From Gloeophyllum trabeum ATCC 11539 (taxonomy: Eukaryota > Basidiomycota > Agaricomycetes > Gloeophyllales > Gloeophyllaceae): a stretch of 64,000 nt of DNA. Shown one piece after another: positions 37,938-40,273 of the stretch. Below the pieces are notes generated by a model. That model was given only the letters and a program-made list of their open reading frames with translations, ran no database searches and was not told the origin of the DNA. The position numbers and the translations under genes were made by a program. The first letter of the stretch is position 1; each line of letters opens with the position of its first letter. Location of the stretch: positions 88,868 to 152,867 of the forward strand of contig NW_006920428.1 of the NCBI RefSeq assembly GCF_000344685.1, written 5' to 3'.

Positions 37938-40273
37938 ATGTCCGTCTTGCTGAGAGCTGTCGTTGACCTTGTCGACAGGACCGGCGTGGGCGAACTGCCA
38001 AGAGATGGGATCAGTGTTGGATATGTTGTACTCTTGCTCTTTCTTATTTTGCACGTATTTTCTATAATCATCGCAGAGGTACGCACCCGCCAATCGTTCG
38101 GGAATATCGACTAATTTTACTCCAGAGAGGTATCCCCCCCGCTGGATATCCCAAATGGATGGGACCGTGCTACGGGGCCGTCCGATTTTATTTTGCGTCG
38201 CAGAAGATGATACAGGAGGGTCATAGAAAGGTAGGTTCTTTTAGGAAAGAGACATCCCAGTGTATTAATGGCGAATAGTACGCGGAAAGTGGGATTTTCA
38301 AGGTGCCCAGGTGGACGAGTTGGCTTATAATAGTCGATAGCGACCAGCTAGGTGAGTTGGATTGGGAAAAATGCAGGGTGGCGGTCTATTGACCCACTAC
38401 GCGACTCAGTTGGAGAATTGTATCAGATGCCAGAGGAGATATTGTCAGAGCGGGATTCTAACAGCGAGGTATACCTGATTAGTGAAACCATACACGGTTC
38501 ATCGGCGCTCACCTTAGTGACGGCAAAGGAAAACCAAACCAAGTATACGATGGGTGAGACCATTTATACCAATCCATACCATGTCCCCCTTCTCCGGAGC
38601 AAGGTGCGCCACCGGTGTCCTATCTCGATTCGCCGTGCCTAACACAGGTTAACAGCTCCCTCGTCACAATGACCTCCTCGGAGCGGAATGCCTGGACGAG
38701 ATCCCCTATGCGTTCGAAGAGGTTATAGGAAGGGGCACGGACGGTAAATGCAGGACGAATCCCGCATAAATGGCTAACTCACATGGTCGTTCCCAGAATC
38801 ATGGAGGAACATAGACATTGTGAAGCCGCTGACGAATGTTGTAGCACGAACATCTAGCCGATTTATCGTCGGAGAACCTCTTTGTGAGCAGAGGAAATTG
38901 GGTCGAACGTTGTAATCCTGATTGACACAGCCACTGCAAGGTCGCGACGAAAGCTACATCAGTGTAGCCCTGCAATCCGGACCGGACATCGTTATCAAGG
39001 CTTTCTTCATTAACCTATTCCCCTCAATATTTAGACCGTAGGTCCTTCCATTTGCACTACGAACCACAGAGTGCGCTAAAGACCTACCAGAATCTCTGGT
39101 CGTCTCCTCACTAACCTACCCGCGAAAACACGGGCCCTGGTCAACTTCTTGGGGCCCGCAATAGAAGAGAGGAAAGCACTCGCAGCAGAAACCAAGAAAG
39201 ACCTGAGCACTAGACACGTTCGTGCAGCGGTGTTATGACTCCAGTCGCATTCTCAACGTGAAAGCAGGACGTACTCTCGGAACTTATGCAAGTAGCCCCG
39301 CCCGAGGAGCAGGCACCGGAGGCCATAGCACGACGAGTGATGGCAGCAAATGCCGCTGCCTTCCATTCGTTATCTTTGGTACGGTCATCGCGTTCGGCGG
39401 ACGGAAGGGCTTTCATGATGACTGTACTTCCCTTTGCAGACGTGCCTCAACGCCCTGGTAACGCTAGCCACACGACCGGAATATGTCCCTCTCCTTCGAG
39501 CCGAGGTGGAGGACGCCATCCAAACCCACGGATGGGGCAAGAATGCCATGGACCAGCTACCCAAATTGGACAGCTTCCTCAAGGAGTCGATGCGGTTCAA
39601 CGTCCTCGGGTCAAGTGCGTATCAAGTTCTGTCCGTTGCTTATGGTCACCGCTGATAGATCTGCACGCCATGAAGCAAGCCTCCCCAGGAAGGCGCGAGT
39701 ATCCTTCAGCTTCTCCGACGGGACGCGTATACCGAGAGGTTCATATGTCGCTGCGGCGTGGTCAAACCATTTTGATGAGCGACATTATCCTTCAGCGACG
39801 TCATTTGATGGCCTGAGATACTATAAAGAGACGAATTCCTCGGGACAGGGAAAGGTAAACGATGTGATCCGCACAAGTCCGTATTACCAGACGTTCGGGC
39901 ACGGGAAACACGCATGGTACGTCCCAGTCCCCTCTAGTAAGAGTACTAATGTCGTACTCGCACCTGCAATCGCACCCACAGCGTAAGTGCAATATTGTCT
40001 TGATTCCGTTTGGGTTGCGTCATTCATGAACGGGATCCACTGGCAATGCAGCCTGGCCGCTTTATCGCGTCGTACATCCTGAAAGGCATCCTGGCGCATA
40101 TCCTGTTGAATTACGACGTTAAGATGGGCGGAGACGGGACGCGTCCTGGGGACATCTGGTTTAAGTTTTTCTGCAGCCCTGCTATGCACATTCCGTGAGT
40201 CTGTTCAGAGAAGTACCGGATCTCACGAGCTCAGAGATCGCCTTGCAGGATGTACTTTAAGCGGCGTACCTGA
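37938..40273 (+). CDS. Cytochrome P450 monooxygenase (tandem copy a)
   Basis: Haem-thiolate monooxygenase with the FGHGKHACPGRF-type haem loop seen in many basidiomycete P450s. ATG 37938 opens MSVLLRAVVDLVDRTG, followed by an anchor YVVLLLFLILHVFSIIIA. Exons continue RGIPPAGYPKWMGPCYGAV, IFKVPRWTSWLIIVDSDQL, LYQMPEEILSERDSNSE, YTMGETIYTNPYHVPLLRSK, RHNDLLGAECLDEIPYAFEE, NVVARTSSRFIVGEPLC and SGPDIVIKAFFINLFPSIFR. The I-helix region follows (APPEEQAPEAIARRVMAANA), then the K-helix LDSFLKESMRFN, SDGTRIPRGSYVAAAWSNHF and FGHGKHA. The Cys codon is split TG | C | with a one-base exon at 39982 between introns 39917-39981 and 39983-40051, then PGRFIASYILKG. Ends YFKRRT at 40273. About 15 exons. The position of one exon near 39190-39260 is uncertain. 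Confidence 0.85.
39982..39982 (+). other. Predicted single-nucleotide exon (haem Cys codon)
   Basis: Sequence reads ...GCATG|gtacgt...cccacag|C|gtaagt...aatgcag|CCTGGC.... Intron 1 is 65 nt (39917-39981, with a tactaat branch-like site) and intron 2 is 69 nt. TG + C restores the invariant cysteine and leaves PGRF in frame. Direct TG-to-CCTGGC splicing would shift the frame. Confidence 0.7.

What the first reader, a model, noticed from the sequence alone, without database searches (positions are those of the whole stretch)
39911..40070. Single-nucleotide exon completing the haem-ligand cysteine codon in P450 copy a
Seen: coding sequence reads GHGKHA then TG|gtacgt; intron 39917-39981 ends cccacag; one base C (39982) follows; then gtaagt opens intron 39983-40051 ending aatgcag; then CCTGGCCGC (PGR). 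Known: P450s need Cys-x-Gly here, and the Cys codon must be TGC/TGT. Splicing TG directly to CCTGGC would give a frameshift; inserting the lone C gives H-A-C-P-G-R-F in frame. Both introns have normal size and consensus ends, and the first has a TACTAAT branch-like site. Inference: a true 1-nt exon at the enzyme's most constrained residue. One-base exons are described in plants but rare; I cannot say whether this one has been reported in fungi.
Basis: partly seen in the sequence, partly recalled or inferred. Interest (0 to 1): 0.88.

Follow-up and report, generated by a model that had tools for sequence, protein, structure and literature searches.

The report
One-base exon in fungal P450 genes
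In three cytochrome P450 genes of a wood-rotting mushroom fungus, the codon for the amino acid that holds the haem iron appears to be finished by an exon only one DNA base long, which the public gene models found miss and so lose the key residue.

Summary
In copy a, TG | intron 39917-39981 | C (39982) | intron 39983-40051 | CCTGGC rebuilds the haem-ligand Cys codon. The same AG|C|GT arrangement is in tandem copy b (C at 42790; 74.9% protein identity) and in dispersed paralogue c (C1:487404; 45.3%). All three genes read through intact. None of 156/215/167 single-intron splicings tried (a/b/c) restores Cys-x-Gly; the two-intron solutions (2/1/1) all use a one-base exon. The contig matches Gloeophyllum trabeum ATCC 11539, whose public models read HVWYPGRF and HAWYPGRF, without the Cys. 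Four relatives keep one intron at the same TG|C position, so the exon most likely arose when a second intron was gained one base downstream. Annotation is also broken here in 11 of 15 public proteins of the clade (Gloeophyllales, Agaricales, Boletales, Polyporales), which suggests, at protein level only, a wide distribution. One-base exons are known: Arabidopsis APC11, fungal mitochondrial introns and, since February 2026, Fusarium CYP621A, another fungal P450. This is therefore a new member of a known kind, at a different codon, with its likely ancestral state visible. No RNA reads were available.

The parts
37938..40273 (+). P450 copy a, 15 exons, conceptual protein 516 residues, intact, all introns GT-AG
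   Evidence: PF00067 E 6.8e-35
39676..39916 (+). copy a exon 12, ends FGHGKHA + TG (first two bases of the Cys codon)
39917..39981 (+). copy a intron 12, 65 nt, GTACGT...CACAG, branch-like TACTAAT at 39944-39950; same position (TG|C, phase 2) as the single intron of four relatives
39982..39982 (+). copy a exon 13: single-nucleotide exon C, third base of the haem-ligand Cys codon TGC
39983..40051 (+). copy a intron 13, 69 nt, GTAAGT...TGCAG; the extra intron (phase 0, TGC|CCT)
40052..40194 (+). copy a exon 14, starts CCTGGCCGC (PGRF...)
40727..43075 (+). P450 copy b, tandem paralogue, 15 exons, conceptual protein 514 residues, intact; introns 5 and 6 are GC-AG (GCGAGT)
   Evidence: PF00067 E 2.3e-38
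42704..42789 (+). copy b intron 12, 86 nt, GTACGT...CCCAG
42790..42790 (+). copy b exon 13: single-nucleotide exon C
42791..42847 (+). copy b intron 13, 57 nt, GTGAGT...AACAG
42848..42990 (+). copy b exon 14, starts CCTGGCCGG

Best explanation
A single-nucleotide coding exon (C) sits between two ordinary short spliceosomal introns and supplies the third base of the haem-thiolate Cys codon in a P450 subfamily of Gloeophyllum trabeum (copies a, b, c). SHOWN from sequence: its position, consensus splice sites, uniqueness among the enumerated splicings that rebuild Cys-x-Gly, presence in three diverged intact paralogues, and one-intron relatives with an intron at the same TG|C position. INFERRED: (1) the exon is included constitutively and the two introns are removed one after the other by intron definition. 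The sites are one base apart and are unlikely to be occupied together, and the downstream donor is near-perfect in its intronic six bases (GTAAGT/GTGAGT/GTAAGT), which could compensate for having no normal exon bases to pair with U1. (2) Skipping the base still reads TGC but shifts the frame directly after it and truncates the protein. (3) The exon arose by gain of a second intron one base downstream of an older TG|C intron, in an ancestor of the a/b/c clade.
For: Anatomy at the stated coordinates. Same AG|C|GT in b and c. All three gene models intact; a-b 384/513 = 74.9% identical with dN 0.16 and dS 1.54, a-c 225/497 = 45.3% with dS not estimable. Splicing enumeration in the range tested: single introns 156/215/167, in frame 16/48/37, restoring the Cys motif 0/0/0. 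Two-intron combinations 874/624/560 restore it 2/1/1 times, always with a one-base exon; a's second solution uses a poor pair (GTAAG|T|GCAATA). Site strength against 35 other introns of a, b, c: intron-13 donors score at or above 35, 30 and 35 of 35, intron-12 donors 33, 33 and 24, intron-12 acceptors 35, 26 and 6, intron-13 acceptors 23, 34 and 34. Rarity. One-intron relatives L034, L035, L036, L039 with introns of 67, 52, 57, 52 nt. Tree: a, b, c fall in a 16-row clade (99/99 support). The 4 public clade proteins with a complete motif have Cys: P0071, P0002, P0108, P0187; P0002 and P0108 are long ORFs on contigs of 1,594 and 2,392 bases, so probably transcript assemblies (inference). Skipping C in copy a gives a stop at codon 471.
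Against: No RNA read was seen. The acceptor of intron 12 in copy c (ACTAG) is weak (6 of 35), and that intron has no YTNAY branch-like motif with its A 8-45 nt from the 3' end, whereas 29 of 35 training introns have one. The public annotation chose another structure (P0001, P0069). Four public clade proteins have a normal motif, so the arrangement may not be universal in the clade. The bare AG-[CT]-GT motif arises in 4-14% of shuffles.
Confidence: 0.93

Rival explanations
1. One long intron: the donor four bases downstream (TGGTAC|gt or TGGTAT|gt) is joined to CCTGG or CCCGG, so the proteins carry Trp-Tyr in place of the ligand Cys and are P450-like proteins without haem thiolate. This is what the public protein models P0001 and P0069 read.
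For: In frame in all three copies; P0001 reads HVWYPGRF and P0069 HAWYPGRF.
Against: The +4 donors GTCCCA, GTTGAC and GTCCTA score below all 35 training donors; the introns would be 131, 140 and 113 nt against a training maximum of 68. The buried YAG|C|GTRAGT in three introns alike in little but their ends would be coincidence. W-Y follows automatically from a GTAYGT donor after TG. The genes as a whole are under purifying selection (a-b dN/dS about 0.11). All 4 public clade proteins with a complete motif have Cys.
Confidence: 0.03
2. The genes are decaying pseudogenes or mis-assembled, and the apparent exon is coincidence.
For: A run of P450-like pieces without an obvious haem motif lies nearby (about 48.1-50.2 kb, by eye).
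Against: Three intact reading frames over 14-15 exons, a-b dN/dS about 0.11, and the same odd structure in three genes.
Confidence: 0.02
3. On origin only: the exon was not created by intron gain but by the route proposed for Fusarium CYP621A (PMC12940212): a base was lost from the exon border and a cryptic AG-N-GT inside one long intron was recruited to restore the frame.
For: Gives the same end state; CCTGG in a and b lacks the leading C that the one-intron relatives have (CCCTGG or CCCAGG).
Against: Both present introns are full normal length (65/69, 86/57, 62/54 nt) and the one-intron relatives have 52-67 nt, so an ancestral intron of 117-144 nt, outside the 46-68 nt of the 35 training introns, would be needed.
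Confidence: 0.25

Closest known systems
CYP621A single-nucleotide exon of Fusarium (Nelson and Syed 2026, PMC12940212; text parts 1-2 of 3 read)
   Same: Nuclear fungal P450, one-base exon between two introns inside a conserved motif, needed for the frame, missed by annotation
   Different: There it is G (AG|G|GT), the middle base of the Gly codon of PKG, in ascomycetes, supported by RNA reads, origin only conjectured. Here it is C (AG|C|GT), the third base of the haem-ligand Cys codon, in a basidiomycete, no RNA seen, and one-intron relatives show the shared intron position
APC11 single-nucleotide exon of Arabidopsis (PMC4674806; passages read)
   Same: One-base exon (A333); [quoted passage not shown]
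   Different: Plant, unrelated gene, tested experimentally in protoplasts
rnl-576/rnl-577 mitochondrial introns of an Ophiostoma strain (PMC12308204; passages read)
   Same: Two introns at neighbouring positions leave a single base (A) as exon, in a fungus
   Different: Self-splicing-type group II introns in a mitochondrial rRNA gene, not spliceosomal introns in a protein gene
Stwintrons (spliceosomal twin introns) of fungi (PMC12403724, PMC9024468: abstract starts in a listing; PMC5639578: abstract start in the listing and a term search without hits)
   Same: Two neighbouring introns in one place that need consecutive splicing
   Different: In stwintrons an internal intron splits a splice element of the external one; here both introns have complete, separate elements with one coding base between them
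Zero-length recursive splice sites (recalled; cited within PMC4674806)
   Same: Acceptor next to donor; removal of the first intron leaves a donor for the second
   Different: Here one coding base lies between and is retained in the mRNA

Membership tests
Single-nucleotide exon (kind) | One base flanked by acceptor AG and donor GT of two full introns | tested here: met
Single-nucleotide exon (kind) | Required for the reading frame and motif; no other splicing does it | tested here: met
   (0 of 156/215/167 single introns; two-intron solutions 2/1/1, all one base; donors from 60 nt upstream of the exon-12 end, acceptors to 40 nt into exon 14)
Single-nucleotide exon (kind) | Present in related genes | tested here: met
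   3 paralogues in one genome; other species only indirectly by protein models
Single-nucleotide exon (kind) | Present in mature mRNA | not testable with these tools
   no RNA reads held
Cytochrome P450 (PF00067) | Profile match above curated cut-off | tested here: met
   copy a 121.2 bits and copy b 132.6 bits against 22.8; the copy c model was not scanned, its public version P0069 is listed with PF00067
Cytochrome P450 (PF00067) | Haem motif F/W-G-x-G-x-H/R-x-C-x-G and EXXR (motifs recalled and named) | tested here: met
   with the one-base exon: FGHGKHACPGRF, FGHGKHVCPGRF, WGYGKHACPGRF; ESMR in all three
CYP621A (Fusarium case) | One-base exon in the Gly codon of the PKG motif, between EXXR and PERF | tested here: not met
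   here the exon is in the haem Cys codon; exons 11 and 12 of the models hold ESMR to the haem motif with no one-base exon between
Stwintron | Internal intron interrupts donor, branch point or acceptor of an external intron | tested here: not met
   both introns have their own uninterrupted GT...AG

The most novel reading that the evidence does not exclude
The one-base exon at the haem-ligand Cys codon is an old, shared feature of an Agaricomycete P450 subfamily (Gloeophyllales, Agaricales, Boletales, Polyporales). It was created when an intron was gained exactly one base downstream of an older one, and has been held by purifying selection ever since. Public annotations of this subfamily systematically lose or garble the catalytic cysteine because of it. 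The Armillaria (KHTCVRTLPGRF) and Taiwanofungus (GKYPCVRVVQ) models would then be reading C plus the GTNAGR donor of the second intron as Cys-Val-Arg.
Probability: 0.6. Interest if true: 0.7.

Novelty: new member of a known kind. Interest (0 to 1): 0.62.

Why it matters
It puts the smallest possible exon at the single most constrained residue of a P450, so inclusion must be near-perfect for activity. Three paralogues with the one-base exon and four relatives with a single intron at the same position in one genome make a natural series for testing how such exons arise and are spliced. If the protein-model pattern holds at DNA level, a P450 subfamily across mushroom-forming fungi is mis-annotated at its catalytic cysteine and would be cloned or synthesised as dead enzymes from public sequences.

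Tried and rejected
The first pattern search used a mistyped pattern and means nothing. One search failed because one piece was under 20 residues. One search stopped at copy b (wrong search start) and one search gave a frame break in b (wrong donor for exon 6); both were set right, the latter by reading the intron as GC-AG. A first splicing enumeration counted slightly other ranges (163/217/165 pairs, 0 with Cys) and wrongly rejected everything in copy c because of its terminal stop; one search replaces it. A pattern scan for TG|GT haem sites gave 9 places; 2 (L062, L063) do not look like P450 by eye, leaving a, b, c and four one-intron genes; the pattern only sees sites of the form CAY-GYN-TG. 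Looking for copies of the copy-a introns elsewhere in the genome found only the site itself, so no intron-family origin was seen. The genome-wide AG|C|GT pattern is not enriched (17 against 19 control sites) and matches only copy b of the three genes; the other 16 sites were not examined for further one-base exons. DNA of other mushroom species was not obtained (metagenome scans are capped at 0 and were not tried; genome contigs is prokaryotic and was not tried), so the cross-species claim rests on protein models. In the tree I used 58 rows: a, b, c, 13 near homologues, 40 of the other homologues found (chosen by hand, all with a normal motif), and two C-terminal pieces of paralogues. P0119 (garbled motif) and the short metagenome fragments were left out, P0001 and P0069 were replaced by a, b and c, and the intended outgroup rows P0047 and P0061 were long branches and did not form one side. 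The three homologue searches listed 68 of 68, 120 of 670 and 120 of 613 proteins, 206 different ones in all. A strict motif test flagged 28 of 206; by eye 10 of these have the Cys and 18 do not have a complete motif: 11 of the 15 in the clade, and 7 of the other 191 (5 short metagenome ORFs P0059, P0062, P0065, P0067, P0068; P0064 truncated; P0119 mis-spliced). Clade membership of the roughly 150 proteins not put in the tree was not tested. The C-terminal end of copy c is uncertain (it may have a further exon). Structure prediction was judged unnecessary and not run.

Full report
OBSERVATION. The sequence at 39911-40070 is as described...CACGCATG | gtacgt...cccacag | C | gtaagt...aatgcag | CCTGGCCGC. 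The window lies in G000:C19:88868-152867 of a 35.5-Mb genome. A protein of Gloeophyllum trabeum ATCC 11539 (P0001) lies on a contig of 574,627 bases, the length of C19, and P0069 of the same strain on one of 4,293,775 bases, the length of C1, so the genome is that species (Gloeophyllales).

GENE MODELS. Copy a has 15 exons (37938-40273) and 516 residues; copy b has 15 exons (40727-43075) and 514 residues, with two GC-AG introns; copy c, on contig C1:489410-487203 (minus), has 14 exons and 501 residues, its 3' end being less sure. All three read through with the one-base exon: C at 39982, 42790 and C1:487404. Copies a and b match PF00067 well above cut-off. Identity is a-b 384/513 (74.9%), a-c 225/497 (45.3%), b-c 210/496 (42.3%); a-b dN 0.16, dS 1.54; dS could not be estimated for pairs with c. 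Introns 12 and 13 of the three genes are alike in little beyond their ends (alignment, by eye).

IS THERE ANOTHER WAY TO SPLICE IT? GT-AG, GC-AG and AT-AC single introns of 30 nt or more were enumerated (donors from 60 nt upstream of the exon-12 end, acceptors up to 40 nt into exon 14): 156, 215 and 167 for a, b and c. Of these, 16, 48 and 37 keep the frame and 0, 0 and 0 give the haem Cys motif. Two-intron combinations (GT or GC donors, introns of 35 nt or more, middle exon 1-60 nt; 874, 624, 560) give it 2, 1 and 1 times, all with a one-base exon; the second one in copy a uses a poor GTAAG|T|GC pair. The public models instead fit a donor four bases downstream, which yields Trp-Tyr in place of Cys; these donors score below all 35 donors of the other introns, and the resulting introns (131, 140, 113 nt) exceed the 46-68 nt range of those introns. 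The intron-13 donors are GTAAGT, GTGAGT and GTAAGT, at or above 35, 30 and 35 of the 35 reference donors. Results against: the intron-12 acceptor of copy c is weak (6 of 35), and that intron has no standard branch-like motif in the range tested, which 29 of the 35 reference introns have.

CHANCE. YAGCGTRAGT occurs on the + strand of the 64-kb window only at the two sites, and 0 times on the minus strand; shuffles reproduce it, suitably placed, at 0.0002, 0 and 0.0001 for a, b and c, while the bare AG-[CT]-GT appears at 0.139, 0.036 and 0.064. Genome-wide, a stricter pattern gives 17 sites against 19 for the reversed control; it matches copy b but not a or c.

RELATIVES IN THE SAME GENOME. Protein searches of the genome with the exons on each side found 9 and 12 places. 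Four P450 genes (L034, L035, L036, L039) have one intron at exactly TG|C, of 67, 52, 57 and 52 nt; two (C15 and C6 genes) have the intron one codon earlier, G|CT TGC and G|CA TGC (by eye). A pattern search for TG|GT haem sites found 9 places, 7 of them P450: a, b, c and the same four. So the TG|C intron is shared and the TGC|CCT intron is the extra one. Intron gain one base downstream is the simplest origin; the base-loss and cryptic-exon route proposed for Fusarium is a less likely alternative, since it would need an ancestral intron of 117-144 nt.

OTHER SPECIES, PROTEIN LEVEL ONLY. Three homologue searches listed 206 different public proteins (68 of 68, 120 of 670 and 120 of 613). Those closest to a, b and c have broken models at the Cys: Neolentinus lepideus HAWAGRF, Armillaria nabsnona HTCVRTLPGRF, A. 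fumosa HTWLPGRF, Taiwanofungus GKYPCVRVVQ, Leucogyrophana HAWYDWMFPGRF, Scleroderma HIWWPGRY, and models lacking the whole haem loop in Mycena pura, M. belliarum and a second Scleroderma protein. With P0001 and P0069 this makes 11 of 15 clade proteins, against 7 of 191 others (5 of them short metagenome ORFs). A tree built without the haem columns puts a, b, c and the broken models in one 16-row clade (99/99); the label needs 4 changes against 11.1 in shuffles (0 of 500 as low). The outside rows were chosen by hand and all had a normal motif, so this shows clustering only among the rows included. Four clade proteins (P0071, P0002, P0108, P0187) have an intact HACPGRF. Cys-Val-Arg after the ligand in Armillaria and Taiwanofungus is what reading C plus a GTNAGR donor would give. 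Broken models can have other causes, so this remains a strong hint and not proof. Orders of Armillaria, Taiwanofungus, Leucogyrophana and Neolentinus were looked up; those of Mycena and Scleroderma are recalled.

MECHANISM. Splice sites one base apart are unlikely to be bound together, so the two introns are most likely removed in turn; a similar view is taken for Arabidopsis APC11 (PMC4674806, passages). Skipping the base in copy a still gives TGC but a stop at codon 471; retaining intron 13 gives a stop at 468, intron 12 at 493 and both at 484, so only exact inclusion gives the full enzyme. Order of removal and efficiency are unknown.

LITERATURE. Searches for single-nucleotide exon (14 papers), stwintron or microexon (40 of 735 listed), micro-exon with basidiomycete (2 papers), six wordings of one-base exon (7 papers), microexon with fungi and single nucleotide (10 papers) and micro-exon with P450 and Phanerochaete (1 paper) turned up one fungal nuclear case, PMC12940212 (text parts 1-2 of 3 read), and a mitochondrial one, a single A between two group II introns in Ophiostoma rnl (PMC12308204, passages, which also cites a similar case in Ceratocystis). 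In PMC8208691 the term occurs only in the reference list. Passages in three basidiomycete genome papers mention short exons or mapping options only. I found no report of a one-base exon in a basidiomycete or at a haem-ligand codon in these searches; other listed papers were not opened and subscription papers are mostly not held.

VERDICT. A real one-base exon (confidence 0.93 without RNA), a new member of a known kind, with a one-intron state in relatives of the same genome and a likely wide distribution that can be tested at once in public DNA and RNA.

Noticed in passing
window 37938-43075: The public G. trabeum protein P0001 is a chimera: residues 1-327 match copy a and residues 321-402 and 405-452 match copy b, so the tandem pair is annotated as one gene lacking the haem Cys.
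   Followed up: yes
L047 (C19:280483-280961): A relative has a 13-nt micro-exon (GTCGTCACGCATG) inside the haem motif, between an intron at G|GT CGT and one at TG|C (by eye).
   Followed up: partly
window 41382-41436 and 41525-41581: Copy b introns 5 and 6 both use a GC donor (GCGAGT), while the same introns in a and c use GT.
   Followed up: partly
window 52108-52605 (+) and 32184-32396 (-): Further P450 exons in the window by profile (E 2.0e-45 and 5.9e-14).
   Followed up: no
window about 48160-50200: P450-like exons without an obvious haem motif, perhaps a degenerate copy (by eye).
   Followed up: no
window about 45690-45870: A MYND-type zinc-finger pattern (CCYCKAEM...RRCAGCKLTRYCG / PQCQRADWQRHRAACK), by eye; motif recalled.
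   Followed up: no
genome-wide, 16 further sites listed: Other TNYYNNYAGCGTRAGT sites in the genome, not more than the reversed control overall, not examined individually for one-base exons.
   Followed up: no
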